Source of the DNA: Chitinophagaceae bacterium
GTDB taxonomy: Bacteria > Bacteroidota > Bacteroidia > Chitinophagales > Chitinophagaceae
Direction: 5' to 3'
NCBI GenBank assembly: GCA_027486835.1
Contig: JAIXOJ010000169.1
Span: 1-38,657, forward strand
DNA: 38,657 bases
Under the pieces are notes generated by a model. That model made no database searches. It saw nothing but the letters and a program-made list of their open reading frames with translations, and was not told where the DNA came from. Positions within the stretch are counted from its first letter, which is position 1, and the number at the start of each line of letters is the position of its first letter. A program made the translations under genes and the position numbers. Positions 1 through 38,657 of this stretch are shown piece after piece.

Positions 1-336
1 ACACAGAGATATGCTTCCCTGACATCGAGATATGCTTCCCTGACACAGACATATGCTTCCCTGACACAGAGATATGCTTCCCTGACATCGAGATATGCTT
101 CCCTGACACAGAGATATGCTTCCCTGACACAGAGATATGCTTCCCTGACATCGAGATATGCTTCCCTGACACCGAGGTATGTGTTCCTGAAACCTAGGTA
201 TGCCTCCCTGACACCGAGATACGCCTCCCTGACACCTAGATATGCTTCACTGACTCCGAGGGATTCGTTCCTGACACATAGTTAGGCTTCCCTGAATACT
301 AGTTATGCGTTCCTGAATACTAGTTAGGCATTCATG
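1..336. repeat. 21-bp tandem array, 16 copies, truncated by window start
   Basis: Sixteen direct copies of a 21-bp unit, roughly ACACAGAGATATGCTTCCCTG, run without gaps from base 1. The first eight are nearly identical and come in two versions, ACACAG (A) and ACATCG (B), in the order A B A A B A A B, which is a 63-bp higher-order repeat. Copies 9 to 16 decay progressively to the right. The forward frame stays open as (T-Q/S/P-R-Y-A-S-L)n until a TAG at 283-285, but no start is visible and other frames are open too, so I treat it as a non-coding satellite. It probably continues left of the window. Confidence 0.95.
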
Positions 337-531
337 CGTAATAGGTTTGATTTCCTACTCCGAGTTAGGGTATTCGGACTCCTGTATTTAATTGTGTGTA
401 ACAACCGAATTTTTCAATTGCATTCTGTTTCGATAAGCTGTTTTTCAAAGTACAACTTCTACTTGATAGCATATTGATATTTAGTCGATTCCTTTTGCTC
501 CTAAGATTTGACCTCGTAATTGGGAGCTAAT

Positions 532-600
532 GTATTATTTCACTTATGATGCAGGTGGTTTCGACGGGCTCAACCACCTACATGATAAGTGAAATAATAC
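532..600. repeat. Large imperfect hairpin (29-bp arms, 11-nt loop)
   Basis: Two 29-base arms (532-560 and 572-600) pair except at two positions, around the loop TCGACGGGCTC. The inner part, AGGTGGTT-TCGACGGGCTC-AACCACCT, looks like the short dispersed hairpins common between genes in Bacteroidota. The outer arms extend it far beyond the usual size. It has no U-tract, so it is not an obvious terminator. It could be an extragenic palindromic element or the relic of a small inverted-repeat insertion. Confidence 0.8.
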
Positions 601-956
601 TAAATTGAGCCAAGGCCAATGAATGAGGGTATGATCAATGAATGATCAAGCAAAAGCCTATTCATAAATGTTTACTCTAAAAGTTGCTTGCCTTGAAAAC
701 ATTGATGCCCTATCCGCAATTCTTGGCACGAAGGAATCATTTGCCGAAGGCGGAAATAGGGTTAATTGGTGAATGTGTGTTCGTAATTTGATTACCTATA
801 ATTATGAAAGAACTTTAAATGGTTTGATTTTTTTGATTTTGGTTACTTGGATGGGATGATAGTGTTGATTGTTGAGTAAATAGTATTAATTAACCAAAAT
901 TGGCAAATTATCACTTTAGGCAATGGCTATATTTGCCCGCTTAAAAAAATGCGGTT
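601..956. other. Intergenic stretch before the oxidoreductase gene
   Basis: I see no convincing gene, RNA or repeat here. It must hold the promoter of the 957-2509 pair, but no close match to the Bacteroidota promoter consensus stood out. Confidence 0.4.
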
Positions 957-1934
957 ATGCTGAACGTGGGAATTTTTGGAGTGGGTCATTTGGGGAAATT
1001 TCACCTTAATAATTGGAAGGAGATTCCGGGTGTAAAAATTGTTGGATTTTTTGACCCTAACCCTGAACAAGCAAAGGCTGTGGCTGAGACTTACAATATA
1101 AAACGCTTTACTGATGCTGACAAACTGATTGATGCCTGTGATGCCCTAGATGTGGTGGTGCCTACTGACAAACACTACGAGGTGTGTATGCGGATTTTGA
1201 GAAAGGGGAAACACTTGTTTGTGGAAAAACCTTTGGCAAATACGATTGAAGAGGCAAGAACGATTGTGAATATGGCAAAGGAAGCGAACGTGAAAGTGCA
1301 GGTGGGGCATGTGGAGCGATTTAATCCTGCGTTTTTAGCTTTAAAGGATGTCCAGATAAAACCCATGTTTATTGAGGTTCACCGCTTATCGCAATTTAAC
1401 CCACGAGGTACGGAAGTGAGCGTGATTCTTGATCTAATGATTCACGATATTGACATCATTTTGAGCTTGGTGAAAAGTGGTGTAAAAAGCATTTCGGCAA
1501 ATGGTGTGGCGGTAATGACGGATACACCAGACATTGCTAATGTGCGCATAGAGTTTAACAATGGATGTGTGGCTAACCTTACGAGCAGCAGAATAAGCAT
1601 GAAGAAGATGCGAAAGATGCGTTTTTTTCAAAAGGATTCCTACATTGGTATTGACTTTTTAGAAAAGAAAACAGAAATCATTAAATTAAAACAACCAGAG
1701 GATACGGACGTATTCGCTTTTGATTTAGAAACATCTAGCGGAACAAAAACGATAGCTGTGAGCAACCCAAACATTCCAAATGCCAATGCTATTAAGCTTG
1801 AACTAGAGTCATTTGTATCTAGTATCATTAATGACACACCTACGGTAGTAAGCGAAATAGACGGTTTTTTAGCTATGGAAGTAGCCCATCAAATCATTGA
1901 TAAAATAAACACAACAAATAGTTTGGTAAAATAA
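957..1934 (+). CDS. Gfo/Idh/MocA family NAD(P)-dependent oxidoreductase
   Basis: Predicted cytoplasmic sugar dehydrogenase of 325 residues, a typical length for the family. The N-terminus is a Rossmann fold with the dinucleotide-binding motif GIFGVGHLG (residues 5-13). The family signature E-K-P is at residues 90-92, with the lysine as presumed catalytic residue. A D-x-x-x-H motif sits at 159-163 in the C-terminal substrate domain. The substrate cannot be read from sequence; members of this family oxidise or isomerise (nucleotide-)sugars. The next gene, a sugar transferase, starts 8 bases after the stop, so the two are very likely one operon. A nearby ATG at 949 is out of frame and soon meets a stop, which supports the start at 957. 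Confidence 0.88.
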   Translation: MLNVGIFGVGHLGKFHLNNWKEIPGVKIVGFFDPNPEQAKAVAETYNIKRFTDADKLIDACDALDVVVPTDKHYEVCMRILRKGKHLFVEKPLANTIEEARTIVNMAKEANVKVQVGHVERFNPAFLALKDVQIKPMFIEVHRLSQFNPRGTEVSVILDLMIHDIDIILSLVKSGVKSISANGVAVMTDTPDIANVRIEFNNGCVANLTSSRISMKKMRKMRFFQKDSYIGIDFLEKKTEIIKLKQPEDTDVFAFDLETSSGTKTIAVSNPNIPNANAIKLELESFVSSIINDTPTVVSEIDGFLAMEVAHQIIDKINTTNSLVK

Positions 1935-1942
1935 AATATCCT

Positions 1943-2509
1943 ATGCTCAAACGCTGTGTGGATATTGCCGTGGCAGGATTGGCCATTATTGTATTGTCCC
2001 CCATTATCATTGTGATTGCACTAATAACTGCGGTTTTTTCGCAGGGGCGCATCATTTATAAACAAGAACGCATTGGATTAAATGGCCAACCATTTATGAT
2101 GTATAAGTTCATAAGCATGTACCCTGATGCAGAGAAAGATGGTCCAGCCTTGTGGATGGAAGGGGATGTGCGACAAACACGATGGGGTGTTTTTATGCGC
2201 AAACGCAGATTTGATGAACTACCTCAATTGTGGAATATATTAATCGGTGACATGAGTTTTGTGGGTTCTACCCGGCCAGAACGCAAATATTATGTGGATC
2301 AAATCCTGGCTATTGCCCCCGCTTATGCCAATTTATTGGCTATTAAACCAGGGTTGGTTTCGATAGGGATTGTGGAGTATGGCTATGCTTCATCTGTGAA
2401 GGAAATGGTGGAAAGAATGCAATATGACTTAACCTATTTAAATAACCCCTCCCCTTTTAAAGATTTAAAACTGATTTGGCGAGCATTCTGGAAAGTAATG
2501 TTGGGTTAG
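1943..2509 (+). CDS. Undecaprenyl-phosphate sugar-1-phosphate transferase (bacterial sugar transferase)
   Basis: A 188-residue membrane enzyme of the monotopic sugar transferase family. Such enzymes move a sugar-1-phosphate from a nucleotide sugar to undecaprenyl phosphate, starting synthesis of a capsule, exopolysaccharide or O-antigen-like glycan. It has one hydrophobic N-terminal segment (about residues 8-33) and the catalytic core only, without the multi-pass N-terminal part of WcaJ or WbaP. The core shows YKQERIG, PDAEKDGP, DELPQLWN and GDMSFVG, then RPERKYY. Two usual positions deviate: the KFRSM-like motif reads KFISM, and the VGPRPE-like motif reads VGSTRPE. The stop codon lies inside a 7-bp tandem repeat, so the C-terminus may have been altered. 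It is likely co-transcribed with the upstream oxidoreductase. Confidence 0.88.
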   Translation: MLKRCVDIAVAGLAIIVLSPIIIVIALITAVFSQGRIIYKQERIGLNGQPFMMYKFISMYPDAEKDGPALWMEGDVRQTRWGVFMRKRRFDELPQLWNILIGDMSFVGSTRPERKYYVDQILAIAPAYANLLAIKPGLVSIGIVEYGYASSVKEMVERMQYDLTYLNNPSPFKDLKLIWRAFWKVMLG

Positions 2510-2539
2510 TGGTTAGTGATTAGTGATTAGTGATTAGTG
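2505..2539. repeat. 7-bp tandem repeat (GTTAGTG/ATTAGTG), 5 copies
   Basis: Five copies of [GA]TTAGTG run from 2505 to 2539. The first contains the stop codon of the sugar transferase gene (TAG at 2507-2509). The same heptamer recurs at 32498-32532. Confidence 0.9.
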
Positions 2540-5590: not shown

Positions 5591-5668
5591 TCGTTAGGTT
5601 TAGATTCTAGTGATGAAAGCATATTTACTGGGAAAGTAAATATGAATGGAGGCTATCTGAACTTTCTG

Positions 5669-5961
5669 AGATAGGCACATTAAAGCCAAAGTATGACTCT
5701 TTGTTTTCTAAGATAGGCACTTCAAAATCTAGGGATGCCTCTTAGTTTTCTAAGATAGGCACTTCAAAACGAATGTATGACTCCTAGCTTTATAAGATAG
5801 GCACTTCAATAACAAATATGACTCTTAGCTTTCTAAGATAGGCACATCATTAACAATGTATGACTCTTAGCTTTATAAGATAGGCGCTTCAATACCAAAG
5901 TATGACTCTTAGTTTCCTAAGATTGGCATATCAAAACCAATGTTTGCCTCTAACCATTCTA
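5669..5961. repeat. 42-bp tandem array, 7 copies
   Basis: The anchor AGATAGGC recurs at 5669, 5711, 5753, 5795, 5836, 5878 and, as AGATTGGC, 5920. Spacing is 42 bp, with one step of 41. Each unit holds a second block close to TATGACTCTTAGCTTTCTA. Every copy contains TAG in the seven-codon frame discussed in the findings, so the array is not coding. It fills most of the 420-bp gap between the M1 peptidase gene and the convergent gene at 6011-6826. Confidence 0.92.
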
Positions 5962-6010
5962 AGGATGTATTCTATTTTGGTTTATGGAATCGAATGTTAG
6001 TTTAAATCGA

Positions 6011-7626: not shown

Positions 7627-7661
7627 TAGTTATAGGTTATAAGTTGTGGGTTGTGGGTTAT
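7627..7661. repeat. Degenerate 7-bp tandem repeat (TAGTTAT to GGGTTGT), 5 copies
   Basis: The five heptamers are TAGTTAT, AGGTTAT, AAGTTGT, GGGTTGT and GGGTTAT. The array ends 7 bases upstream of the start of the minus-strand gene at 7162-7620, so it lies in that gene's leader or promoter. Confidence 0.7.
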
Positions 7662-12340: not shown

Positions 12341-15300
12341 TTATTTTACTAAAAGAACAGGTTTTGTTCTTGCATTTGCGATACCAGAAGCAGTAATATA
12401 GTATTGTCCTGCTGGTAGATTCGCATTAGATTGTAGGTTGAACTGAAGTGTATTTGTGCCACTTAATACATATTTCTCAAAGTGAAGAACTACTTTACCA
12501 TGTGTATTAGTAACATCAAAAGATACCTTCTTAGGCTCTGCAACATTTATTGCAATAGTTAATTTGCCATCTATAGTTGGGTTAGGTGTTATATTCCAAT
12601 TATCAGTTGTTGCAAACTCAACTGTGTTAAGTAATTTACCACTGGTTTTCACAATTCCAACTTTATTGAAATCAGCATCCCAAGCTTCTACTTGTATCAG
12701 CTCAGAGGAAACATTAATAGCATCATTAGTAATTGGTGATTTTTTGTTGAACACCAACTCAAACACCTGACTACCATCGGATAATGTTTTGGCCTCGTTC
12801 TTACTATCTGCCCATAGGAAAGATATTTTGCCCTCTGAAGCTTTACCCACACTGTATTCCATATCCAATGTATTCTTGTCGATACCTACTAATTGTAGTT
12901 GATTAGCATTGAAATGGAGTGTGTACTGCATACCGATAATGTTCTTAAAGTTTTTAACACGAATTGGAATACGCACCTGATTTGATTCAGTTGCTGGAAC
13001 ATCATTGAAATAGATTTCAATTGGTTTAGTGATTTTACTGATTGATCCAAATGGAGTAAGCGTCGGATTCCAATCATAGTTAACATCTCCTAGTTTAATT
13101 CCAATGAACGACTGGCTCTTTTTATCTGAACCAATTGATGATATTACGATGCTGTCTTTGTAAGGTATCGTTACTGTAGTTTCACTTATACTACTGTCAA
13201 CAAATGCCCATAAACGATTGCCAATAAAGCTCTTATCAATACCAAGTATCAAACGCTTTAGATACAATATATCTAGCACAGAAACGCTACCACTTTTGTC
13301 CACATCTGCAGCTATCACTTTATAGGGAGAATTAAAAGTGAACTTATTCAAAATGGCTCCTTGTATTTGCAATACATCAATTACAGATATACCATTTGCT
13401 TTTATGGAATCATTGTTCTTTGAAGGAACGATTACATTAGAAGTTCCAGATGTTACCTTGAAACTGTAGTTCCCAGCAGCATCTGTAGTTGTACTTGTGC
13501 CTCCATTTAATGATACGGTTGCAACAGGAACTGCATAGCCTAAAGGAGATTTAATGCTACCGGCTATAGTGAATTCTGTTGTAACTGACATTATCACTAA
13601 ATTAGAAGTAACTGTGTTTGCAGTGACACAACCCAAACTTGTTGTAATAACACACGCAATTGTGTCCTTATCATTTAAAGTAGTAGTCGTGTAGGTAACG
13701 GCAATGGCACCAGCAATTGGCACTCCATTTTTAGTCCATTGATAAACTGGTGATACTCCACCATTAACTGGGTTTGCTGTAAAAATCACCGAAGTTCCAC
13801 TGTTTATACTAGTTGCACTCGCTGTTATCGAAACGCTTGGAGTGAGCGGAGTTGTAACTGTTAGCACTAAGGTTGCTAAACTATCACAGCCAGTGGCATT
13901 TGATAGGGTATCCGTGTAAGAACCTGCGATCGAATAAGACTTTCCGTTGAAAGTATAGCTAGCCCCTCCACAGATTGTGGCATTGGTAGTACTAGATGTT
14001 TTAGCATTTACTGTTAAAATCAATGTTGCCGTACTATCGCAACCAACCGCATTTGTTGTTTTGAAAGAATAGGTTCCAGCAGTTGAATAATTGTTTCCAT
14101 TAAATGTATAGACACTGCCCTGACAGATACTCGCTTTCGTAGTAGAACTAGTCGCAGCTTTTACAGTAATAGCAACTGTATTACTAGTAACTGTTTTTGC
14201 AGTTACACAAGCTAGTGAACTGTTCAAATCACAGGTAACTAAATCGCCATCACTCAAGGTAGATGTAGAGTAGGTACTTCCTGTAATTCCGGTAGATACT
14301 CCATTCACTTTCCAAGTGTATGTAGGGGTTGCACCGTTGTTGTTACCCGCAGCCGTGAAAGCAACACTAGTACCAGCGCATACCGAAGTTGCAGATGCAG
14401 ATATGCTTACAGATGGAGTTACAAAATTGGTAACGTTAACCGAGATATTATTGCTGGAAGCAGTTGTTGCAGTAACACAAGCAACGCTACTAGTTAAAAT
14501 ACATGCAATCTTATCAGTAGCGGTTAAAGCATTATCACTGTAAGTGGCTGCATTCGTACCAACGTTCACGCCATTCTTAGTCCATTGGTAAGTAGGTGTT
14601 ATACCACCATTTACTGTTGCGGCAGTGAAGCTCACGGCTGCACCGAAGCATACATTAGAAGATGAAGTTGAAATAGTTATTGATGGTGTGACACTCGGAG
14701 TTAGAGTAACAGTATTGGTTGTGCTGTCTATACAACCTTGATTTGAGGTAGCAGTCAAGACAACAGTAAATGTACCCGCTTTGCTATATGTATGAGCAGC
14801 ATCAGTAACATTATCTAAAGTTGCATCACCAAATGACCATTTGTAACTGTTAGTTCCAGAGGAAATGGTGCTACCATTGGTGAAAGCGTAATTGTTTCCA
14901 TTCAAGCATTGAGTAGCATTATTTATGGTGAATGCCGCAGATGGATTTGGATGAATTACAACTTGTTTTGTAAGACTATCGATACATCCTCCGTTGCCTA
15001 TAGCCAATAATTTCACATCATAAGTTCCTGCGGTCGCAAAAACATTGGTGGGGCTGACTGTTGTGGATTGTTTGTTATCAATCGTCCAACTGTAGGTTAA
15101 TGAACCGCTTGCTATAGTAGTGCCGTTAGTAAACACAAAATAGTTTCCATTTAAGCATTGTGCGCTATCATTTACACTAAATGAAACAATTGGAATGGCA
15201 CTTACCGATAATGCTTTTTTTGCAGTATTGGTACAACCGAAGCTGTTAGTAACGGTATAGCTAATTGTATCAACACCAACGTTCACTGCGTTTACTAAAC

Positions 15301-22368: not shown

Positions 22369-22383
22369 AACTATTTAATCAAG

Positions 22384-22414: not shown

Positions 22415-22565
22415 GGAGAAGTTTCTACTAAGAAGGTTTAGTAGGTAATTGTCCCAATTATGGTTTTAATGTTGCGAATTAATCTTCACAAAACAACTTG
22501 CAGCTGTAATAATCAGTGATTATTGAGATTTTGGGGGATTTCTATGATGATGGGATGGGTAACAC

Positions 22566-23816: not shown

Positions 23817-24023
23817 AATTTTTTTTCAAGCAATATTTAGTAATCCACGCAAAGGTTGCAAAGGAGAAGTTTCTACTAAGAAGGTTTAGTAGGTAATTGT
23901 CCCAATTATGGTTTTAATGTTGCGAATTAATCTTCACAAGACAACTTGCCGCTATAATAATGTTGCCTACACATTGATTATAGTGATCAAGGGGGATTTC
24001 TAAGATGTTGGATTGGGTAACAC

Positions 24024-24692: not shown

Positions 24693-24998
24693 TCAGACTT
24701 TCTTTTTATTTCTTAGCGCTTCATAGACATTTTTTTGAACCCCCTCGATAATTTTTTTAATCCCCTCGGCATTTTTTTGAACCTCCTCCGGAATTTTTTT
24801 AACCTCCTCCGCAATTTTTTGAACGTCCTCCGCAATTTTTTTAACCTCCTCCGCATTTTTTTTAACCTCCTCCGCATTTTTTTTAACCCCCTCCGCATTT
24901 TTTTTAACCTCCTCGGTAATTTTTTTTACCTCTTTTGCGATTTCATTGCCTGATTTATTTTTTTGAAAGCTGAACTTGCTAGAGTTTTTGTTTACCAC
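24693..24998 (-). CDS. Coiled-coil heptad-repeat protein built on a 21-bp DNA repeat
   Basis: A 101-residue frame starting MVNKNSSKFSFQKNKSGNEI. Residues 21 to about 91 are ten heptads of E-E-V-K-K-N/I-A. With V at position a and N/I at position d, they fit a long amphipathic coiled coil. The heptads come from a 21-bp tandem DNA array (about 24728-24940). Changes between copies are mostly conservative (E/G/D, K/Q, N/I, A/P). That hints at coding selection, though two other frames are also open, as expected for such an array. There is no signal peptide, family or partner that I recognise. It could equally be a non-coding array that happens to be open. Confidence 0.5.
   Translation of the reverse strand: MVNKNSSKFSFQKNKSGNEIAKEVKKITEEVKKNAEGVKKNAEEVKKNAEEVKKIAEDVQKIAEEVKKIPEEVQKNAEGIKKIIEGVQKNVYEALRNKKKV
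24728..24940. repeat. 21-bp tandem array, about 10 copies
   Basis: Plus-strand unit near GCATTTTTTTGAACCTCCTCC. A/T-tract length and a few bases vary between copies. It overlaps the coiled-coil frame at 24693-24998. Confidence 0.9.
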
Positions 24999-27984: not shown

Positions 27985-28200
27985 CCTATTCCGAAGAGGA
28001 TGATGCTAGTACAATTATTGGGATTTACAAATTCCACTTACAAATCTCAAGTACATCACACCATCTTAGAAAAAGAGGAGGAATATATAGTAGTTGTTGT
28101 GGCCTCCATTTAAATAGAAAAGATTTATTTGCATTTGGGTTAGTTGCTTTTGGTTAATGGATTTGGAAATCCCAATTATCTTTTCAGCCGAGATACGCTG
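27985..28200. repeat. MITE-like element, copy E2 (diverged)
   Basis: The left inner arm is TATTGGGATTTACAAATTCCA (28016-28035 region). The middle aligns with E1 (AGAAAAAGAGGAGGAATATA against AGAAAAAGCAGAAGAATATG). The right arm is GGATTTGGAAATCCCAATTATC followed by a TTTCAGCC-GAGAT remnant. It lies immediately after the propeller gene. Confidence 0.65.
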
Positions 28201-28332
28201 CGCTAACAACTCGCACAGCTGTATCAACACGAATTCCAGTTACAAACTGGTTTATTAAATAGACACAAGTCATCCTTCGGAAGACTTGCGCCAGTGGATG
28301 ATTTTAAAACATTTTAAATTAGGAAATCGGTT

Positions 28333-28745
28333 CAATAAATTCGAGCAAGCATTGAAAAAATTCGTGCAAGCATGAGAAAAAATTGTGCTAGCGTTGAAAA
28401 AAATTTGTGCTAGCATTGAAAAAAATTGTCCAAGAGTTCAAAAAAATTGCTCAAGGGTTTAAAAAACTATCGGAACGATTGCTAAAATTGGACAAACACA
28501 TCGAAAAATCGGTGGGACAAACAAAAAATTCAAGCAAGCATTCAAAACATTCGTGCAAGGAGACAAAAAATTGTGCTAGGGATAGAAAAATTCGTGCTAG
28601 CATTGAAAAAATTCGAGCAACACATCGAAAAACTGGAGCAACACATCGAAAAACTCGAGCAGCATATCTGAAATCCGAGCAAGTATGCTTCCAATTTGAG
28701 CAAGCAATGAAAAAACCCGAGCAACAATGGAAAAAATTGGAGCAA
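28333..28745. repeat. Degenerate 21-bp tandem array, about 19 copies
   Basis: Unit near AAAAAATTCGAGCAAGCATTG. Copies drift and small indels shift the frame several times. One frame reads heptads such as F-E-Q-H-I-E-K-L-E-Q-H-I (28606-28671) before a stop; another reads KKIVQEFKKIAQGFKKL near the left end. Every part therefore encodes coiled-coil heptads in some frame, but no single frame covers it. The 130-codon frame at 28407-28799 begins with GTG and changes character midway, so I do not call it a gene. Confidence 0.85.
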
Positions 28746-28819
28746 ATAGTTTTCTTGTTTATATCAGTATGCGTACAATTCTCCGTTCAGGCGCAATGAT
28801 CCGAAGGGCATCTTTTCTA

Positions 28820-29041
28820 AATGGATAAATGAGATTTCCAAATCCCATTTACAGATTTAATGAAGCTCATTATTATCTGCTTTTAGGATATACCATTAAT
28901 ATCTGCATCACTTTATCACTTTTATGGTTTACCAATGTGTGGAAGCAATCATTGGTTGTTATGCCAATTCTAGCAATAGAAAAGTATTGTTTGAAGTAGG
29001 TTTAATATAGCTTGTGGTTTAAGGGATTTCCAAACCCCTGC
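28820..29041. repeat. MITE-like element, copy E3
   Basis: The left arm has GAGATTTCCAAATCCCATTT and the right arm has GGGATTTCCAAACCCC. The interior, about 165 bp, is nearly the same as in copy E4 (30058-30330): ACAGATTTAATGAAGCTCAT, GGTTTACCAATGTGTGG and AATTCTAGCAATAGAAA occur in both. The pair flanks the BRO-N-like and toxin-antitoxin debris between them in the same orientation. Confidence 0.82.
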
Positions 29042-30057: not shown

Positions 30058-30330
30058 GACATGTTCCGTAGGGCATGTCGCCTGAACAGATAATTGGGAT
30101 TTGGAAATCCCATTTACAGATTTAATGAAGCTCATTATTCTTTGCTTTTAGGATATACTATCAATATCATCATCACTTTGTCACTTTTATCGTTTACCAA
30201 TGTGTGGCAGCAATCATTGGTTGTTATTACAATTCTAGCAATAGAAAGGGATTGTTTGAATTAGTTTTAATGTAGCTTGTTGATAATGGGATTTGGAAAT
30301 TCTATTTATCTGTTTAGGCCAGATGCGCTG
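30058..30330. repeat. MITE-like element with inverted hairpin ends, copy E4
   Basis: The left end is the hairpin GACATG/CATGTC (30058-30079), then GCCTGAACAGATAA and the palindrome-like GGGATTTGGAAATCCC. The right end (30287-30318) reads ATGGGATTTGGAAATTCTAT, then TTATCTGTTTAGGCC, the inverted counterpart of the left end. The interior is nearly the same as in E3. It lies 30 bp downstream of the GH105-PL10 gene stop. Confidence 0.82.
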
Positions 30331-30360
30331 CGCTAAAATCCCCCTCTTTAATAATAACCT

Positions 30361-32496
30361 TTATAAATTCCCCTGTTTCCAAGCTGGATATTTCTTTGAT
30401 AATAGCTGCACAGGCCAGGTGCCGTACCAAGCATAGCCTACCCTACGTTCTTGTTCTATTTCGGTGAGTTTATATCTTTTAATACCATCTCTTCCGCAAA
30501 AGAAAGGGGTGTTGGTGTCTATATCGTAATACCTAGCCCAAATGTTGGCGCCTTTTTCGGCTACTACTACCCTATCTTTCCCTTTTACATATCCTTTGTC
30601 GGGAATTTCCATTACTTTAAAATCTTTAATTTTCACTTCCTCTAACCAGGCTACACCAGCGTTTATTGCTTTTTTTATTTCGGGGGTTGGCTTGGATAAT
30701 TGCATCAAGAAACTCAGTATCCCTACTGTTTCACTACCAGATATTCCAATGAGTTCAAATTTTCTGGCGTTGCAGGGCTTGAGTGTTTTTTCGTCGTATT
30801 GCTGGCACCATCCTGCTAATTTGCCATTGGACATAAGCTGGGTTTTTAAGATGCAGTCAATTCCTTTTTGCACTGCGTTTGCCGCTTGTTTTACTAAGGT
30901 AGTATCGGTAATAATTTCTAAATGGTGCTGGCGTTGGGTGATGTCGTACAGTACATTTAAGGTATTAATCATGGCGTTGTCGTTGTAGGTAATGGCCCCT
31001 CTGTACATACTACGGTCGGGATAAAACTGAGGCCATCCACCATTGTTGTATTGTGCTGCTAACAAATAACGAACACCTTTTTCTACGGCAGCCAAATACC
31101 GCTGGTTACCCGTTTCTTTAAAAGCCCAAGCTAAATAGCGAATCTCTTTGTTGGTGGCTTCGTTGTCTATAGTTGCATCTTCATCGCTCAACGATGCGAC
31201 AATGTCTTTTTTCTCTTTATCGGTATATACTTTGTCGTAACCAAATGTTTTGTCGTGCAGGTGCTTGGGCCAACCCCCTATTTTTTGCTGCAACAAGAGC
31301 ATGTTTTCGGCGGCTAAATCTTTGAGGCTCTCCATTTCTAGGGCAGCACCTATGCATACACCTACGCCTTTTAAATCATTTACCACCACTTTCTCACTCA
31401 TGTAATAAGCGAAACTTCCATCTCTGTAAGGTTTGCCACCTAATCCGCTTACGGATACTGTTCCAGTTAAATTGGTTAATCCCTTAGCGTCTATTTCAAT
31501 AAATTTTTGCTGAATGCCCTTGTAGGCTTTTTTGGCTATGGACATATTGGCATAAGGCAACCAACCTGCTTTTACTGCCTTGGCAATGGTGTACACAAAC
31601 ATACAACTGGCGGAGGCTTCCAGGTAGTTGGGCTTTTCGTTGGGTTTGTCTAGTACATCGTACCAAAGCCCCGTTTCTGCATCTTGCACTTTACTGATAG
31701 CCACTGTAAATCGGTTGAGGATGGATAACAACACCCCTCTTTTTGGATGGTTGTCGGGCATTTGTGCCAACACATCAACCAAGGCTATACCATACCAGCC
31801 CATGGCTCTTGCCCAAAAATTGGGGGAATTGCCTGTTACCTTATTGGCCCATTGTTGCTCTTTGCTTTCATCCCAACCGTGGTATAACAAACCGGTAGTG
31901 CTATCTCTCACGTGTTTTTCGATGATGATGAATTGTTGGGCGATGTCATCAAATGCTTTTTTCTGCTTAAACATAGTGGCCCATTCTGCATAAAAAGGTT
32001 CGCCCATGTATAAACCATCCAACCACATTTGGTGGGGATAGATTTTTTTGTGCCAGAAGCCTCCTTCTTTTGTGCGGGGATGGGTATCTAACTGCTTACG
32101 GAGCAGTGCAGCAGCCTTACGATATTTTTCTTGTTTGGTTTGCTTGTATAAAAAGAGGAGGATCCTGCCCGAGAGTACATTATCTATGTTGTAATCATCG
32201 GGTTTATAGGTTCTGATGCTACCGTCTTCTGCAACGAAAAAGTCCATCATCTTTTTTATGTAGGCGAGATATTCTGGTTTTTGGGTTTGCTGCCATACAC
32301 CTTCAATGCCTTTTAACACTACCCCTTGCTCGTAGCTCCATTTTACATAGGGTTTCTTCTCTCCTACTGAGAAACTATCTGGCCAATTGGTCATCACCAT
32401 TTTGGTGAGTCTTTCGCTAAGCGGCTGTGCTTGAATGGGTTGTAGGGAAACAACAATACCAAACAATAGAAAAATAAAAGCAAAACGCATCATCAT
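30361..32496 (-). CDS. GH105-PL10 fusion: unsaturated galacturonyl hydrolase plus pectate lyase
   Basis: A 711-residue protein with a signal peptide (to about residue 24, I-Q-A-Q). Residues 28-345 match GH105 unsaturated rhamnogalacturonyl/galacturonyl hydrolases: an (alpha/alpha)6 barrel with MWLDGLYMGEPF, whose D160 sits at the known catalytic Asp position, plus LLYHGWD and FWARAMGWYG. Residues 395-705 match PL10 pectate lyases: GGWPKH (407), AAQYNNGGWPQFYP (480-493), TYNDNAMINTL (503), GISGSETVGI and FFCGRDGIKRYKLTEIEQERR. The PL10 part would cut polygalacturonate by beta-elimination, and the GH105 part would release the unsaturated uronic acid from the product ends. No T9SS domain, so probably periplasmic. 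It is the last gene of the minus-strand pectin cluster, but gaps of 160-365 bp suggest separate promoters. Confidence 0.88.
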   Translation of the reverse strand: MMMRFAFIFLLFGIVVSLQPIQAQPLSERLTKMVMTNWPDSFSVGEKKPYVKWSYEQGVVLKGIEGVWQQTQKPEYLAYIKKMMDFFVAEDGSIRTYKPDDYNIDNVLSGRILLFLYKQTKQEKYRKAAALLRKQLDTHPRTKEGGFWHKKIYPHQMWLDGLYMGEPFYAEWATMFKQKKAFDDIAQQFIIIEKHVRDSTTGLLYHGWDESKEQQWANKVTGNSPNFWARAMGWYGIALVDVLAQMPDNHPKRGVLLSILNRFTVAISKVQDAETGLWYDVLDKPNEKPNYLEASASCMFVYTIAKAVKAGWLPYANMSIAKKAYKGIQQKFIEIDAKGLTNLTGTVSVSGLGGKPYRDGSFAYYMSEKVVVNDLKGVGVCIGAALEMESLKDLAAENMLLLQQKIGGWPKHLHDKTFGYDKVYTDKEKKDIVASLSDEDATIDNEATNKEIRYLAWAFKETGNQRYLAAVEKGVRYLLAAQYNNGGWPQFYPDRSMYRGAITYNDNAMINTLNVLYDITQRQHHLEIITDTTLVKQAANAVQKGIDCILKTQLMSNGKLAGWCQQYDEKTLKPCNARKFELIGISGSETVGILSFLMQLSKPTPEIKKAINAGVAWLEEVKIKDFKVMEIPDKGYVKGKDRVVVAEKGANIWARYYDIDTNTPFFCGRDGIKRYKLTEIEQERRVGYAWYGTWPVQLLSKKYPAWKQGNL

Positions 32497-32497
32497 A

Positions 32498-32532
32498 TAT
32501 AGTGATTAGTGGTTAGTGATCAGTGATCAGTG
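32498..32532. repeat. 7-bp tandem repeat (ATTAGTG/ATCAGTG), 5 copies
   Basis: TATAGTG, ATTAGTG, GTTAGTG, ATCAGTG, ATCAGTG. The array begins 2 bases upstream of the start codon of the GH105-PL10 gene, so it forms that gene's 5' leader. It is the same heptamer as at 2505-2539, on the same strand of the DNA although the flanking genes point in opposite directions. Confidence 0.9.
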
Positions 32533-32654
32533 ATTTGGGGAGGGTTTCCAATTAAAATTTTTATTAAAAATCATTTTTTAAACTAACTATTATTGAGAAA
32601 GGACTGATGGGCTAATGTTGGCGCTAGATTGGTCGGTTCATGCCGCACCTAGGT

Positions 32655-33662
32655 TTATAACTTTCCTATTGGTATCCATTCATCTTCTCGCTCAAAAATG
32701 TTAGCAAGTGTAAATCGTTTGGCTTGGCGGGTGGTTAACTGTTTGCTCCATTTTACCCTAGCATTTGGATTTGCACCTTTACCTGTGCTGTTATACTCCG
32801 CATATACCACCGTTGTTTCATTATCGGGATTGCGCCAATTATCCCATCCTTCTGGCAAAATATGGCTACCCATTTGGGTTCTTATCCAAACTGTTTTGGC
32901 ATTTGGCCGCCAAGGTCGGCCTAAATAAACTTTTGTTACCCCTGTGTCGGCCACTAAGGAACAATCGAAAAAAACAAATCCGTAAACCTGTCCTTTTCGG
33001 GTGGAAGCCGCGGTGATGTATGAATTACTTAAACTTTTGATGGTGCATTTTTCAAAAACGGCTATGGCTTCGCCGAATATAAAATCGGTGGTGCCTTCTA
33101 TGTAACAATCGGCGAAGTATTGTCTTTTGTTTTCAGTAGCAGCATAGAGGGTGTCTTGGTTGCCTAATAACCTGCAATGTAAAAATTCACATCGATCGGC
33201 TTCTACATGCACGGCTACTGCTTGGCCTACCCTTCCTGCTTTGTTCTGGATAGTTAGGTGTTCTACCTTAGTGTCATTACCTTGAACGAGTAGGGTATAA
33301 GAAGTGTACGTACTGTGTTTGTCTTTTCCAAACATATCCTTCAAAGCAAGCGGCTTGCCGGAAAAATCACTATTGGTTATTATGGTGCTGTCTTCGTCTT
33401 CGCCCATTAAGGTGATATTGGTTTTCCAAGAAGGTATGACTAACTTCTCAGCATAAATCCCTTTTTTTATATAAATAGTTACCTGCACTTGCGATAAATC
33501 TCTTACCGCATTGATTGCTGCTTGAATGGTAGTGAAATCTGCCTTTCCAGAAAGCGCTACGGTAAATTGGGTGGGGTAAACAATGGCTGTGGAGGGCTTG
33601 TTCTGTGCCCAAACCATCGCCATGTTTACACTAAAGAAAGCCATTAAGAGCCATTTAAGCAT
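32655..33662 (-). CDS. Pectin methylesterase (CE8)
   Basis: A 335-residue secreted enzyme with a signal peptide ending near residue 20 (V-W-A-Q). It removes methyl esters from homogalacturonan, producing the acidic pectate that lyases and polygalacturonase need. All CE8 signatures are present: GQAVA with Q147, GNQDTLY with the general acid D170, TTDFIFG with the nucleophile D193, and LGRPW with R249 and W251. The beta-helix length is typical. No T9SS domain is seen, so a periplasmic site is expected. It lies between the fusion gene and the polygalacturonase gene on the same strand. Confidence 0.94.
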   Translation of the reverse strand: MLKWLLMAFFSVNMAMVWAQNKPSTAIVYPTQFTVALSGKADFTTIQAAINAVRDLSQVQVTIYIKKGIYAEKLVIPSWKTNITLMGEDEDSTIITNSDFSGKPLALKDMFGKDKHSTYTSYTLLVQGNDTKVEHLTIQNKAGRVGQAVAVHVEADRCEFLHCRLLGNQDTLYAATENKRQYFADCYIEGTTDFIFGEAIAVFEKCTIKSLSNSYITAASTRKGQVYGFVFFDCSLVADTGVTKVYLGRPWRPNAKTVWIRTQMGSHILPEGWDNWRNPDNETTVVYAEYNSTGKGANPNARVKWSKQLTTRQAKRFTLANIFEREDEWIPIGKL

Positions 33663-34026
33663 GCTTTATCTATTTACAGATTAGTCACTATTATTCAATG
33701 CGAAATTGTAATTACACTGAGTGGCACTGAGGTTTCACAGAGGTACACAGAGGTTTTTTATTCTGTGTTATTCTGTGAATTTTTTATTGCACTGAGTTGC
33801 ACTGAGGTTTCACAGAGTGAGAGATTGGCGGACAAAGTTTCCTAGTTGTATAACCTACGCGAATTACCACCCCGCCCTTCGGGCACCCCCTCGAGAGGGG
33901 AATTGCCTACCGAGTATCTAGAAACCGCCTTTTTCCAAGGAAGTTATATAGTAGTTACACAGAGGATCATGGCATTGTGAACCTCTGTGTTTTATTTTGA
34001 ACCAATGCTGTAATGCTACAAACAAC
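33663..34026. other. 364-bp intergenic stretch made of short dispersed repeats
   Basis: No gene. CACTGAGTGGCACTGAGGTT at 33718 recurs, slightly changed, at about 33785-33822. CACAGAGG occurs several times, including the hairpin at 33958-33988 (CACAGAGG...CCTCTGTG). A compact GC-rich piece (about 33870-33902, CCCGCCCTTCGGGCACCCCC-like, then CTCGAGAGGGG) resembles common Bacteroidota intergenic palindromes. The hairpins could end transcription of the polygalacturonase gene. Confidence 0.65.
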
Positions 34027-35655
34027 TTACTTTATTTGAAGAACCGACTCTGAAACGCCTGGGGCAAAAACTACTTTTTGTTCTGCATTGCTCACGTCTG
34101 TTTTAGTTACGACCAATTGCTTATTTCTTTCTCCATTAATGCTAAAAAGAACTTTTGCCATATTTACATTTTTAAAGTTTTGTAATTGTAGACCATTGCA
34201 GTTTTCTATGTATACAATGGGGTTCAACTCTTTTGTAGCAACCGTAATATTCTTAAGGTCTAGATTTTCTGCTTCAAACAATTCCACACCTTTATCAGCA
34301 CGAATGCTCACATCGGAAATATGGATGTTCTTGATACTCATTTCTGGCAAGCCTCTTACAAAAATACCTTTAGCTGCACCATCACAAACTATATTACTGA
34401 TGTAAAAATTTTGGAATTGAGGAGTGGCTTCTGTCACTTTAGGTGCCTCTACTTTTTCACCGGGTTTAGGGCTTTTGGTAAAATAATACATGTCGAAGTA
34501 AATGGCTTCGTCTATAATGTCTTTCATGTAGATATTCTTGCAGTAGATATTCTCTACCATACCACCTCTACCTCTAGCTGTCTTAAAGCGTAGTCCTTTA
34601 TCGGTACCCATGAAGGTGAGGTTGTACGCAAATATATTTTTAGCGCCGCCGCTCATTTCGCTACCAATAACAAAACCACCATGGGCACGATATACATAGC
34701 AATTACGCACCACTACATTTTCGGTGGGCATGCCTCTTTTTCTGCCTTGTTCGTCACGTCCACTCTTAATGCAGATACCATCATCCCCAGCATCGAGGGT
34801 GCAACCTTCAACCAAAACATTTTTGCAACTCTCCAAGTCTAAGGCATCCCCATTGTGGGCATACTCAGGGTTTTTCACAGTTACATTCCTGATTGTTACA
34901 TCCTCACACATTAACGGATGCACGCACCAAGCTGGTGAATTTTGGAAAATTACACCTTCAAGCAATACTTTTTTGCAACGAGTAAGTACCAATAAATTGG
35001 GTCGTAAAAAATCTTTGATAGATTCAAAATCGGCTTGAGACGATAACTTTTTTAGTTCGCCAGACTTATACAGCTTTTCTCCTTTCTCCGACTGAGGAGA
35101 AGGATACCAAGTTTTCCCATCTTCAGACAACATGCCACCAGAAGCCACTTGGTGCTTCCAATCGCTTTCAGTCAAACGATTCCTTCCTACTGCTCGCCAA
35201 ATATCTCCATTACCATCCACTACCCCTTTACCCGTGATGGCAACGTTTACTAAGTTGGTTCCAGAAATGGGCGATTGGTTACGGTAAGTTTCTAATCCTT
35301 CCCAGTTGGTTTTTACTAGCAGATATTGATTAAAATCTCTCGTAAAATCAAGCACCGCATTTCTGCTTAGAGATAGATTTACATTGCTTTTCAACTCAAT
35401 AGGACCAGTAATCCATACACCTTCGGGTACTAACACTACGCCGCCACCATTTTTGTTACAAGCATCAATGGCTGCATTAATACTTTTCGTATTGAGGGTT
35501 AATCCATCTGCAATCGCACCGAACTTTTTAATGTTGAATGTATCTTTCTTAAAAGTGGGTACTGCGGCTTTGGGTAAATTATCCCAAGAATATTGCGATT
35601 GACCAAATACCACAGCGCAACATAGGGAAGCTACTAAAAAGGAACGTAATAACAT
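34027..35655 (-). CDS. Polygalacturonase (GH28)
   Basis: A 542-residue secreted glycoside hydrolase with a signal peptide (to about residue 18-19, V-F-G-Q). It has a right-handed beta-helix with GH28 catalytic signatures: NGDALD (268-273) in place of the usual NTDG, GDDGICIKSG with D291-D292, AHGG with H325 (usually GHG), and RFK at 356-358 (usually RIK). The positions of the catalytic Asp triad and the His are kept. The extra loop at about 155-215 and the overall length favour an exo-acting or oligogalacturonide-trimming enzyme over a fungal-type endo enzyme, which is inference. It hydrolyses alpha-1,4-galacturonosyl bonds. It lies between the PL1 and CE8 genes in the pectin cluster. Confidence 0.92.
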   Translation of the reverse strand: MLLRSFLVASLCCAVVFGQSQYSWDNLPKAAVPTFKKDTFNIKKFGAIADGLTLNTKSINAAIDACNKNGGGVVLVPEGVWITGPIELKSNVNLSLSRNAVLDFTRDFNQYLLVKTNWEGLETYRNQSPISGTNLVNVAITGKGVVDGNGDIWRAVGRNRLTESDWKHQVASGGMLSEDGKTWYPSPQSEKGEKLYKSGELKKLSSQADFESIKDFLRPNLLVLTRCKKVLLEGVIFQNSPAWCVHPLMCEDVTIRNVTVKNPEYAHNGDALDLESCKNVLVEGCTLDAGDDGICIKSGRDEQGRKRGMPTENVVVRNCYVYRAHGGFVIGSEMSGGAKNIFAYNLTFMGTDKGLRFKTARGRGGMVENIYCKNIYMKDIIDEAIYFDMYYFTKSPKPGEKVEAPKVTEATPQFQNFYISNIVCDGAAKGIFVRGLPEMSIKNIHISDVSIRADKGVELFEAENLDLKNITVATKELNPIVYIENCNGLQLQNFKNVNMAKVLFSINGERNKQLVVTKTDVSNAEQKVVFAPGVSESVLQIK

Positions 35656-35757: not shown

Positions 35758-35838
35758 GCAAATCGATTTAAAAATAAAACACTGTTAGTTTTGAGTGCGG
35801 CGCTTCGAGAAACAATTCATTTAATAAGTACCTACTTA

Positions 35839-38379
35839 TTATTCTTTTATCACTTTAGCAGTAAATGATGTGCTCTTGTTAGCGTATATCAGAAAATAGG
35901 TACCTGCCTTTAAAGTTGAAAGTGGCAGTTTACTTTGGGTTGTATTATTTGGTAAAACCGCATTATACACCAGTTTACCATCTGGACTGTACACTTTTAC
36001 CTGAGCATCATCCGTTGATAAAGAATAATTGATGACCAAACTGAAACGAAATGGATTTGGACTAACTGTAATTCCGTTTTTGTTATCGTCAATAGCTACT
36101 ACAACTACTAAACTATGCCTATAAGTTCCGTCTTTATTGATGAGCTTTAGGCGATAATAAAATTTCCCAGCCTTGAATGACTTGTCGTTGAAAAAGTAAA
36201 GCCCCTCCCCTTTTTTGTTTTCTGAGTTTACTGTTCCAATAACGGTATAATTAATGCCATCTTCACTTTTTTCTACCTCATAGCCAGACATATTAATTTC
36301 ATTCTGGGTAGTCCAACTCAATACAATATCTTGCTTATTTGCCGAACCAGTAAAATTAACTAGACTAACAGGAAGCAAAAGACTTTTACCGGCAATAAAA
36401 AATGTACCAAGCTTAGCAGTAGTAAATTCTACATAGTATCCATTGTTGTATGTACCAAATAAGCTGGCTCCATCAAGTACAATGGGGGCAACTGTAGTTC
36501 CAGAGAAATTAGTGATTAAGTTTGAGTCAGCCACGAGATACACTTGCAAATCGTTAATACTGTTGACATTTGTAGCTGAATTTTTCAATGCATTAAACTC
36601 GTTAGCAGTAAAGAACAAACGAATTTTAATTGGCTGCGCCAAAGAGGTAATTCCGTTAGTAGGGATAATGGAGATATTTCTACGTAAATAAGGTTGCAAA
36701 TTATAGAGTCTGGAACCCGATGTAGTGTAATAATAAACTTTCAATTGGTTAGTAACACCACTATCGTAAACAGATGCCACTAAGTTCATAGTGTCGGTAC
36801 TAATTAACCGAGTGTAGGTTGTATCCTTTGCATTCAACCATTGGTTGGTAGATTGCAACAGCATATCGGTAGCAGGCAAAAAGGTATTTGACTTTCCAAA
36901 AGCAACTATACTGTCTCCATTTAAGAAATTCTCTAAATTGGTATATCCATTGGTACTAACATTATTTCTGTCAGCCGCATTGGTGCTATTTAACCCACGC
37001 TGCATTTCCCATTCATCAGCCATACCGTCGTTATCTACATCGGCACTTGGTGTAGCACCGAGTAAAACAGGCCAACCGCCCACATTTGCTTGTCCATCGA
37101 TGATACCAGAAGGATGGGTAACATTGGTAGATTTTACTGTTGAATATCCAGGCCCCTCGAAAGTGGCTGTTCCATCACGGGTTTCCCTTAATATTCTTCT
37201 ATCAACTGTATCTCTTTTTGGTAAATAAGCACCTACGTTATTAAGAACTGATAAGTATGCGTCTTCTGCAGTTTGTGTATTTATCGGAGCAACAGCAATA
37301 GGAGCAGTTAATTTATTTCGGGCCATTAAGCTAGCCGCTTTATAAAACCCATCTGATTGTACACCTTTAGTCCAGTTGTCTGCACTAACATCAGGATAGC
37401 CTTTCACAAAATTGCCATCTACGAAATACTTTCCACCCCAGAGTGTATCAGGATATATATAGGAGTCTTTGGTACAATAGTAACTTGTGTAGGAGAGAAT
37501 ACGATTTCTAAGATTTTTGTTTGAGCTTGTAAAACTACCTGGAGTGGCAGGACCAGGTTTATAGTAGTTGTTAATGATATTGTAGTTGCCTCCTTCTCCG
37601 CCATAAACGGTGTTGATATTGCCCCAGTTATACAGCACATTGTTGCGAAAATCTACTACTTCTTTGAGTGAATCGCCAGTATATCGGCTTCCACAAAACC
37701 TTGGGTTTCTGCTGGTATGATGCGCCAATAAATTATGGTGGAAACTAGCACCTTGCCCACCCCAAATACCAGCGTATCCGTGATCACCTTTGGGGTCAAC
37801 ACTTTTATAGAAACTCTCGCTGAGGATACACCACTGAAGTGTAAACTTTTTTATGTCGTAAAAACTACCTGTTTCATCAATAGACCAACTTAAAGAACAA
37901 TGATCTACTATGATATTTTCATCTGTTGGAACTGGACTGTTTCCATTTGCATCCATTGCATCATCAATATAGGAAGTCAAATCACCTAATCTGCAACGGA
38001 TATATCTTACGATAATGTTACTAGTATTGAGTCGAAGGGTAAAATTCTTCAAACAAATGCCATCGCCTGGTGCTGATTGTCCAGCTATCGTGATATTACC
38101 ATTGGCTATTTTCAGGTCTGCTTGTAAGCTAATGGTTCCAGAAACTTTAAATAAAATAGTTCTAGCTCCAGTAAGCTTGGTGATGCCATATCTCAAACTA
38201 CCCACCGTTGGTTTTGAGGGATTATCGGTGGTATCAGTTACATAATATACAATACCTCCACGACCACCTGTGGCAAACCGGCCAAAACCTTCTGCTCCTG
38301 GAAACGCCAATTGCTGGGCATTTCCCGTATTAAATAATGCAATTAATACAACTACAACACAAGAAAACCATTTATTCAT
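35839..38379 (-). CDS. T9SS-secreted pectate lyase (PL1)
   Basis: An 846-residue protein with a signal peptide (to N-A-Q, about 22). Residues 25-430 form a PL1-type right-handed beta-helix: FPGAEGFGRFATGGRGG at the start, ITIAGQSAPGDGI, IIVDHCSLSWSIDET (D159, D168, E169 as likely calcium-site residues), HHTSRNPR with the catalytic-type R224/R227, and DFRNNVLYNWG. A calcium-loop-like ADVDNDGMADEWEM element follows. About 500-690 is a beta-rich linker domain. A region with VNFTGSANKQDIVLSWTT comes next, and a type A T9SS sorting domain (VSPNPFRFSLVINY to AKVIKE) ends the protein. It would cleave de-esterified homogalacturonan by beta-elimination at or outside the cell surface. It is the only pectinase here with a T9SS tail, so probably the first to meet the polymer. 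Confidence 0.92.
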   Translation of the reverse strand: MNKWFSCVVVVLIALFNTGNAQQLAFPGAEGFGRFATGGRGGIVYYVTDTTDNPSKPTVGSLRYGITKLTGARTILFKVSGTISLQADLKIANGNITIAGQSAPGDGICLKNFTLRLNTSNIIVRYIRCRLGDLTSYIDDAMDANGNSPVPTDENIIVDHCSLSWSIDETGSFYDIKKFTLQWCILSESFYKSVDPKGDHGYAGIWGGQGASFHHNLLAHHTSRNPRFCGSRYTGDSLKEVVDFRNNVLYNWGNINTVYGGEGGNYNIINNYYKPGPATPGSFTSSNKNLRNRILSYTSYYCTKDSYIYPDTLWGGKYFVDGNFVKGYPDVSADNWTKGVQSDGFYKAASLMARNKLTAPIAVAPINTQTAEDAYLSVLNNVGAYLPKRDTVDRRILRETRDGTATFEGPGYSTVKSTNVTHPSGIIDGQANVGGWPVLLGATPSADVDNDGMADEWEMQRGLNSTNAADRNNVSTNGYTNLENFLNGDSIVAFGKSNTFLPATDMLLQSTNQWLNAKDTTYTRLISTDTMNLVASVYDSGVTNQLKVYYYTTSGSRLYNLQPYLRRNISIIPTNGITSLAQPIKIRLFFTANEFNALKNSATNVNSINDLQVYLVADSNLITNFSGTTVAPIVLDGASLFGTYNNGYYVEFTTAKLGTFFIAGKSLLLPVSLVNFTGSANKQDIVLSWTTQNEINMSGYEVEKSEDGINYTVIGTVNSENKKGEGLYFFNDKSFKAGKFYYRLKLINKDGTYRHSLVVVVAIDDNKNGITVSPNPFRFSLVINYSLSTDDAQVKVYSPDGKLVYNAVLPNNTTQSKLPLSTLKAGTYFLIYANKSTSFTAKVIKE

Positions 38380-38406
38380 AAGAAAATATTACAACAATTG
38401 TTTTTC

Positions 38407-38433
38407 GGCTTAAAGTCCCATGGGATTTAAGCC
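38407..38433. repeat. Near-perfect palindrome upstream of the PL1 gene
   Basis: GGCTTAAAGTCCCA pairs with TGGGATTTAAGCC around a CATG centre, with one base offset. It lies 28 bp upstream of the PL1 start. It may be an operator or an extragenic palindrome. Confidence 0.6.
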
Positions 38434-38525
38434 CATTTATTATGTCTAACCATCTGTAAACAATGCTAATACGATATTAGCTCGACTATTTAATCGAATT
38501 TGTTTTTGAAACGGATTATTAAGCG

Positions 38526-38657
38526 CTAGCTATCGCTTCCGAACTGGTCGATACCGCTTTTTAAGCCCTCGCTTCCTCTTCCGAACTGGTCGATACCGCT
38601 TTTTAAGCCCTCGCTACCACTTCCGAACTGGTCGATACCGCTTTTTAAGCCCTCGCT
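38526..38657 (-). repeat. 42-bp tandem array, 3 copies, truncated by window end; open on both strands
   Basis: The anchor TTCCGAACTGG recurs at 38537, 38579 and 38621, exactly 42 bp apart. The minus strand is open as SEGLKSGIDQFGSG repeats, ending with F-G-S-D-S and a TAG at 38526-38528. The plus strand is also open as SPRYHFR-TGRYRFL. Either could be the end of a repeat protein entering from beyond the window, but intergenic satellite DNA is at least as likely. Confidence 0.85.

What the first reader, a model, noticed from the sequence alone, without database searches (positions are those of the whole stretch)
1..38657. Five unrelated-looking tandem arrays all have a period of 21 bp or exactly 42 bp
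Seen directly: arrays at 1-336 (21), 5669-5961 (42), 24728-24940 (21), 28333-28745 (21) and 38526-38657 (42). Units differ in sequence and base composition, yet the period is always 21n. The number 21 is both seven codons and two turns of B-DNA. Nearly all lie between genes or at gene ends. Inference: either one mechanism (for example slippage or rolling-circle seeding of seven-codon or helically phased units) makes them, or selection keeps the phase for bending, supercoiling or nucleoid protein binding. I do not know a described system that does this.
Basis: partly seen in the sequence, partly recalled or inferred. Interest (0 to 1): 0.75.

Follow-up and report, generated by a model that had tools for sequence, protein, structure and literature searches.

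The report
Genus-wide noncoding 21-bp repeat arrays
This freshwater bacterium and its genus carry many unrelated stretches of mostly noncoding DNA repeated in units of 21 letters (or doubles and triples of that), a puzzling kind of repeat already described in other bacteria, whose cause is still unknown.

Summary
All five arrays are real, and 21 bp dominates beyond the window. In 613 kb of the genome (41 stretches, about 10%), 43 of 76 arrays with period >=15 are exactly 21n and 56 are within 1 bp; three shuffles gave 0-2 arrays. Pooled stretches of 12 genus relatives agree (29 of 54); 77 loci of other Chitinophagaceae have far fewer (7 of 29, in 1.39 Mb). Most arrays lie outside genes, and units of different arrays are hardly more alike than composition-permuted ones. 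'No described system' is wrong: Subirana & Messeguer describe bacterial repeats of constant size (20-21 or 52 nt) and variable sequence, function unknown (PMC8161180). My tests speak against coding heptads, selection for bending and descent from heptamers as general causes. They favour a length filter while arrays grow: short duplications are less often 21n (16 of 45) than longer arrays (60 of 96). 21 is the smallest whole number of bases that keeps helical phase at 10.5 bp per turn; that cause is inference. Arrays with longer units (40-83 bp) are enriched in hairpins. Real and striking: a new lineage of a known, unexplained kind.

The parts
1..329 (.). array 1, 21-bp unit, about 15 units, decaying to the right; at the contig's left end
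   Evidence: related array at C49:11170-11300 and a weak match at C118:171-223
5662..5963 (.). array 2, 42-bp unit (some 41), between convergent genes (M1 peptidase and DUF6544)
   Evidence: related arrays at C192, C6, C167
24729..24932 (.). array 3, 21-bp unit; minus strand reads as EVKKIAE-like heptads in a 101-aa frame (24693-24998)
   Evidence: copy at C16:20343-20544 with other flanks
28337..28745 (.). array 4, 21-bp unit with indels
   Evidence: related arrays at C20 and C17, likeness reaching into the flanks
38519..38657 (.). array 5, 42-bp unit; at the contig's right end

Best explanation
These are minisatellites of the bacterial 'constant size, variable sequence' class, mostly noncoding. 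Shown: unrelated sequences at many intergenic places have given rise to arrays with a 21-bp base unit; longer units of 42, 63 and 84 bp occur; a few arrays have relatives elsewhere in the genome, at least two of them without shared flanks. Inferred: short duplications of many sizes arise by accident, but those of 21 bp grow best, by slippage or unequal exchange, because 21 is the smallest whole number of base pairs that returns the helix to the same rotational phase (two turns of 10.5 bp), so misaligned copies can re-pair, or keep the same face towards a bound protein, without twisting. Unit length is then set while the array grows, not by what the sequence encodes.
For: Exact 21n series in arrays and in intergenic autocorrelation, none at 31/32 or 52/53 as base unit. 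Exact tandem matches of 15 bases or more in intergenic DNA: 21 loci at lag 21, 6 at 41, 11 at 42, none at 16-20 or 23-29. Units unrelated: of 231 pairs of 22 consensuses only three exceed what permuted units reach commonly; no shared k-mer beyond simulation. Noncoding arrays below 2.4 copies: 16 of 45 exact 21n; with more copies 60 of 96 (p 0.004); for periods 15-63 only, 13 of 36 against 59 of 88.
Against: Below 2.4 copies exact 21n is still 36%, far above 1/21, so a bias at birth is not excluded. Units of 40, 41 and 62 bp are common and do not keep phase exactly. No sign that unit length is guarded later: mismatch:indel ratio 22 for 21/42/63/84-bp arrays, 24 for other periods, 10 for 20/22/40/41/43/62/83. 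In coding DNA no 21-bp exact duplication was seen among 5 loci, so a bias acting everywhere is not shown. No experiment or strain comparison.
Confidence: 0.4

Rival explanations
1. The arrays are binding platforms for a nucleoid, partition or replication protein that needs sites on one face of the helix every 21 bp (iteron-like); selection keeps the spacing and the sequence matters little.
For: Intergenic position (36 of 45), genus-wide trait, proposed for this class in PMC8161180.
Against: No motif shared by the units, whereas the paper reports short characteristic sequences in many species; length not specially guarded; no placement rule seen (8 co-directional, 4 convergent, 5 divergent).
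Confidence: 0.25
2. An enzyme with a fixed ruler (for example nicks 21 bases apart, then fill-in) makes exact 21-bp duplications of any sequence.
For: Same length from unrelated sequences of 26-62% GC; genus restriction.
Against: Short duplications are less uniform in size than long arrays; 41- and 62-bp units; no 21-bp exact duplication among 5 coding loci in 389 kb or in 241 kb of relatives; Argonaute (3 of 13 genomes) and Cas1 (5 of 13) are absent from the window genome and from G010, both rich in arrays.
Confidence: 0.13
3. Selection for intrinsically bent DNA: repeating any unit every two turns adds its bends in phase.
For: In a wedge model (parameters recalled) 21 bp curves most among unit lengths 14-36; arrays are more curved than ordinary intergenic DNA (10 of 22 above its 95th percentile) and than their column-permuted versions (mean 0.202 against 0.131; 13 of 36 at the 90th percentile or above).
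Against: Against the closer null, random intergenic 21-mers made tandem, arrays are not more curved (mean 0.245 against 0.295, two-sided p 0.24); 12 of 22 are not above the intergenic 95th percentile, and arrays 1 and 2 are nearly straight (0.02); 31-bp units would curve almost as well and do not occur as base unit.
Confidence: 0.06
4. Coding heptads: the arrays encode seven-residue repeats such as coiled coils, and the reading frame fixes 21 bp.
For: Array 3 reads as EVKKIAE heptads in two copies; 9 of 45 arrays lie in called frames.
Against: 36 of 45 outside called genes, and 7 of the 9 inside lie in short low-scoring frames; array 3 differs from its copy at 6, 7 and 8 sites by codon position; mismatches uneven by codon position at p<0.01 in only 3 of 33 testable arrays; periods of 40, 41, 43 and 62 are not multiples of 3.
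Confidence: 0.04
5. The 21-bp units are trebled heptamer repeats, which are common in Chitinophagaceae.
For: 7- and 14-bp arrays are 15 of 44 in other Chitinophagaceae; a few 21-bp arrays are visibly three heptamers (L143, L032).
Against: Inside 31 base-21 arrays, identity at lags 7 and 14 is below expectation.
Confidence: 0.04
6. Assembly artefact: loops of the assembly graph at small k make false 21-bp arrays.
For: 23 of 56 contig ends have an array within 130 bp; 21 is a usual smallest k (recalled).
Against: Most arrays have units that differ from each other by up to 40%, which a graph loop cannot make; arrays within 1 bp of 21n appear in 9 of 13 genus genomes; the class is reported from fully sequenced genomes of other bacteria. 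More likely arrays break assemblies.
Confidence: 0.02

Closest known systems
Constant-size, variable-sequence bacterial tandem repeats, 20-21-nt class (Subirana & Messeguer, Int J Mol Sci 2021, PMC8161180, parts 1-4 of 5 read; their J Bacteriol 2020 paper not held)
   Same: Fixed unit length near 21, unrelated sequences, several families per genome, mostly noncoding, species-specific, no known function
   Different: Other phylum than the Bacillus studied there; no short sequence common to all units; longer units (40-83 bp) rich in hairpins
Plasmid iterons (recalled)
   Same: Direct repeats about two turns apart
   Different: Many arrays per genome with no common sequence; no replication initiator among the 10 window proteins scanned beside the arrays
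TAACTGA-type heptamer repeats (PMC4679880, passages)
   Same: Intergenic tandem repeats, also known from some Bacteroidetes
   Different: 7-bp unit of one sequence; most 21-bp arrays show no lag 7 or 14
CRISPR arrays (recalled)
   Same: Regular spacing of repeats
   Different: No unique spacers between units; no Cas1 match in the window genome

Membership tests
Constant-size bacterial tandem repeats (20-21 nt) | one repeat size dominates | tested here: met
   43 of 76 exact 21n, 56 of 76 within 1 bp
Constant-size bacterial tandem repeats (20-21 nt) | sequence differs between arrays | tested here: met
Constant-size bacterial tandem repeats (20-21 nt) | generally noncoding | tested here: met
   36 of 45 outside called genes, home-made gene caller
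Constant-size bacterial tandem repeats (20-21 nt) | families species-specific | tested here: met
   arrays 2 and 3 match only the own genome, 1 of 13; other arrays not searched in relatives
Constant-size bacterial tandem repeats (20-21 nt) | at least four repeats, 60% of them of one length (their SATFIND criterion) | not tested
   TRF was used instead
Constant-size bacterial tandem repeats (20-21 nt) | short sequence common to the repeats of a species (reported for many species, not defining) | tested here: not met
Heptamer (TAACTGA-like) repeats | 7-bp unit | tested here: not met
   lags 7 and 14 below expectation in 31 base-21 arrays
Coding heptad repeats | arrays in genes with codon-position bias | tested here: not met
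CRISPR array | Cas1 in the genome | tested here: not met
   no match in the own genome
Plasmid iterons | bound by a cognate Rep protein | not testable with these tools
   needs a binding assay

The most novel reading that the evidence does not exclude
A process specific to this genus (an enzyme, or a chromosome-coating protein, with a two-turn register) turns arbitrary intergenic sequence into arrays of exactly 21 bp, head to tail, and in a sub-class into 41-42-bp hairpin units, head to head, so that the ruler and not the sequence is what is inherited.
Probability: 0.15. Interest if true: 0.82.

Novelty: new member of a known kind. Interest (0 to 1): 0.5.

Why it matters
A constant repeat length without a constant sequence would be a clean readout of some physical ruler on the chromosome. 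This genus is a clear case: apparently independent origins, a 21n series, and far fewer such arrays in neighbouring genera. It makes the open question of Subirana & Messeguer testable (length filter, binding protein or enzyme) and lowers the standing of coding, bending and heptamer origins. In practice such arrays also seem to break short-read assemblies: 23 of 56 contig ends in the sample.

Tried and rejected
Shared motif among units: none beyond simulation (36 arrays after dropping six redundant family members or gene-borne arrays). Distant relatedness of units: 8 of 231 pairs share 13 or more of 21 bases against 4.2 (at most 8) for permuted units; the three best pairs (20, 16, 15) include two pieces of one region. 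Rfam: no match in the window. Hairpins as the common feature: not for 21-bp arrays (mean z -0.18; 2 of 21 at p<=0.05, plus strand), but yes for units of 40-83 bp (mean z -1.1; 7 of 23 at p<=0.05); of 9 hand-picked longer-unit arrays of relatives (one of 35, one of 63, one of 126 bp) 5 reach p<=0.01. Guarding of unit length: not shown. Curvature as a general role: not supported against the closer null, although arrays exceed column-permuted versions. Argonaute 3 of 13 genomes, Cas1 5 of 13, Y1 transposase 12 of 13 with 4 matches in the own genome: none tracks the trait. First named-relative search with one protein found no relative; with an alignment it kept the best 80 loci. Paper searches: four-term search empty; phrase search for 21-bp repeats, 25 of 33 papers listed, titles and abstract starts only, none of them about such a bacterial system. 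Not done: strain comparison, RNA data, taxa outside Chitinophagaceae.

Limits: stretches of the genome were chosen by contig number or earlier hits, not at random (C49 was taken knowing it held an array; C118, C192, C6 and C16 were not sampled for counts); the gene caller was home-made; the 77 family loci are flanks of one gene and three loci of the same genus were dropped from the 80 before counting; four of the 12 relatives were sampled at under 18 kb.

Full report
What was checked. The window is one whole contig (C166, 38,657 bp) of a 6.40-Mb draft genome in 219 contigs. Its genus holds 12 other genomes in the collection. Contig numbers and lengths match three of them to records of uncultured Chitinophagaceae (CAISCV01, CANCKV01, CANCPA01). 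TRF confirms the five arrays, and their units are laid out. Array 2 also scores as period 125 and array 4 has indels, so 'always 21n' is slightly too strong.

I sampled 40 further stretches; with the window this makes 612,725 bp. TRF at score >=60 gives 84 arrays: 28 at 21 bp, 14 at 41-43, 6 at 62-63, 7 at 7 and 1 at 14. Of 76 with period >=15, 43 are exact multiples of 21 and 56 are within 1 bp; three local shuffles gave 0, 2 and 1 arrays. A measure independent of TRF, the intergenic autocorrelation, is highest at 21 (z 26), 42 (23), 63 (17), 84 (17), 126 (10) and 105 (10); 20, 31, 32, 52 and 53 lie between z -2.7 and 0.9, and smaller peaks of z 6-7 stand at 14, 15 and 18. After removal of detected arrays lag 21 still stands at z 8.6, the highest. 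In coding DNA multiples of 3 are all raised and 21 does not exceed 33, 84 or 126. The smallest significant lag per array region is exactly 21 in 28 of 64 regions, 20 in none and 22 in one. Counting exact tandem matches of 15 bases or more, intergenic DNA has 21 loci at lag 21, 6 at 41, 11 at 42 and none at 16-20; coding DNA has 5 loci in all, none at 21.

Taxonomic spread. In stretches of the 12 genus relatives (596,299 bp) there are 69 arrays; of 54 with period >=15, 29 are exact 21n and 39 within 1 bp. Eight of the 12 show such arrays; G012 (17 kb) has only 7- and 14-bp arrays, and G001, G004 and G008 (under 13 kb each) gave none in these stretches, though a 21-bp array built of heptamers lies in another G008 locus. 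In G010 all 12 arrays are within 1 bp of 21n. In 77 loci of other Chitinophagaceae (1,394,051 bp) there are 44 arrays, about a quarter of the density of the window genome; 15 are 7- or 14-bp arrays, and of 29 with period >=15, 7 are exact 21n and 11 within 1 bp, some of them visibly made of heptamers. So the trait is strong in this genus and weak, but not nil, around it. Arrays 2 and 3 have relatives only in the window's own genome, 1 of 13 genomes searched.

Position and coding. Of 45 arrays of the 21 class (40-43-, 62-, 63- and 83-bp ones included), 36 lie outside called genes: 8 between co-directional, 4 between convergent and 5 between divergent genes, and 19 where the contig or stretch ends before a gene on one side. 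Nine lie in called frames, two of them in well-scoring genes and seven in short low-scoring frames. Openness of a frame says little, since a 21-bp unit without a stop stays open; still, 9 of 37 arrays are closed in all six frames (hand count). Mismatches between neighbouring units are uneven over codon positions at p<0.01 in 3 of 33 arrays with enough mismatches. Array 3, which reads as coiled-coil heptads, differs from its copy on C16 at 6, 7 and 8 sites by codon position, and the two frames end differently. Coding is not the general cause.

Relation between arrays. Pairwise comparison of 22 unit consensuses in all rotations and on both strands looks like that of composition-permuted units (8 pairs of 231 with 13 or more bases alike, against a mean of 4.2 and a maximum of 8), apart from three pairs with 20, 16 and 15 of 21, one of which is two pieces of one region. 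No k-mer is shared beyond simulation. A few families have members elsewhere: array 1 at C49, array 2 at C192, C6 and C167, array 3 at C16, array 4 at C20 and C17. For the copies of array 2 at C192 and of array 3 at C16 the likeness stops within about 11 bases of the array; for array 4 it runs into the flanks by about 40 to 100 bases; the others end at contig ends and cannot be judged. So most arrays look independent in origin and some were copied.

What sets the length? (a) Heptamer origin: inside 31 base-21 arrays, identity at lags 7 and 14 is below expectation. (b) Bending: in a wedge model (parameters recalled) units of 21 bp curve most among lengths 14-36, but 31 bp is nearly as good (0.188 against 0.206) and does not occur as a base unit. 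Arrays exceed their column-permuted versions (0.202 against 0.131 over 36 arrays), which speaks for bending, but not random intergenic 21-mers made tandem (0.245 over 22 arrays against 0.295, p 0.24), the closer null; arrays 1 and 2 are nearly straight. (c) Later guarding of length: the mismatch:indel ratio of 21/42/63/84-bp arrays (22) equals that of other periods (24) and is higher than that of the 20/22/40/41/43/62/83 group (10). (d) Growth filter: in the window genome and relatives together, 16 of 45 noncoding arrays below 2.4 copies but 60 of 96 with more are exact 21n (p 0.004); for periods 15-63 only, 13 of 36 against 59 of 88. This points to growth or retention as a step where size is chosen, though 36% among short ones is itself far above chance and a bias at birth is not excluded. 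The physical reason offered, that 21 is the smallest whole number of base pairs restoring helical phase at 10.5 bp per turn, is inference; it fits 21, 42, 63, 84 and the lack of 31/32 and 52/53, but not the 40-, 41- and 62-bp units.

A second class. Units of 40-83 bp fold better than column-permuted arrays: mean z -1.1 over 23 in the window genome (7 at p<=0.05, plus strand; -0.8 on the other strand). In 9 hand-picked arrays of relatives with units of 35-126 bp the mean is -3.1 (5 at p<=0.01). The 21-bp arrays of the window genome do not (mean z -0.18 over 21). Whether this is the same phenomenon head to head, or another element of similar size, is open.

Prior art. Subirana & Messeguer (PMC8161180, parts 1-4 of 5 read) describe bacterial tandem repeats with constant size (20-21 or 52 nt) and variable sequence, 20-23-nt ones in many bacterial groups, mostly species-specific and generally noncoding; they note two helix turns and propose nucleoid proteins or small RNAs, with no function known. 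Their J Bacteriol 2020 paper is not held, so I cannot say whether Bacteroidota are in its tables. Transcription of the 52-nt class in B. coagulans is reported in PMC8625621 (passages).

Practical remark. 23 of 56 contig ends in the sample have an array within 130 bp, against about 5% by a rough estimate, including both ends of the window. Arrays are probably under-counted in this draft genome.

Noticed in passing
window 2506-2539, 7629-7661, 32500-32535: Heptamer arrays (TTAGTGA, GTTATAG, TAGTGAT) touching a gene's end or lying just before its start; 7- and 14-bp arrays are the commonest kind in the other Chitinophagaceae sampled (15 of 44).
   Followed up: partly
window 28155-28220, 28796-28856, 30061-30336: A dispersed palindromic intergenic element around GGGATTTGGAAATCCC; most of the 73 match rows fall on it, several places on both strands (only 40 of 136 candidates were scored).
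   Followed up: partly
window 23471-23948 against 22023-22500: A 96% copy (457 of 478 aligned) of the 5' part and upstream of gene 19783-22368, standing as a truncated copy.
   Followed up: partly
window 30361-35655, minus strand: A pectin-degradation cluster: GH88 plus pectic acid lyase fusion, pectinesterase, GH28; the next gene (35839-38379) has only a secretion tail in Pfam.
   Followed up: partly
window 12341-19225, minus strand: A 2294-aa surface-type protein with many Big_2 and PKD domains.
   Followed up: no
L030:1228-1398 (G010), L032:4347-4436 (G008), window 5662-5963: Just 3' of the M1 peptidase gene three of 12 genus loci with that gene carry arrays of 62, 21 (three heptamers) and 42 bp with unlike units; may be chance.
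   Followed up: partly
L044:1-230: A 21-bp array whose neighbouring units alternate AGAGGGCT and AGAGCCCT, as if one unit could pair with the next; fold excess only marginal (z -1.4).
   Followed up: partly
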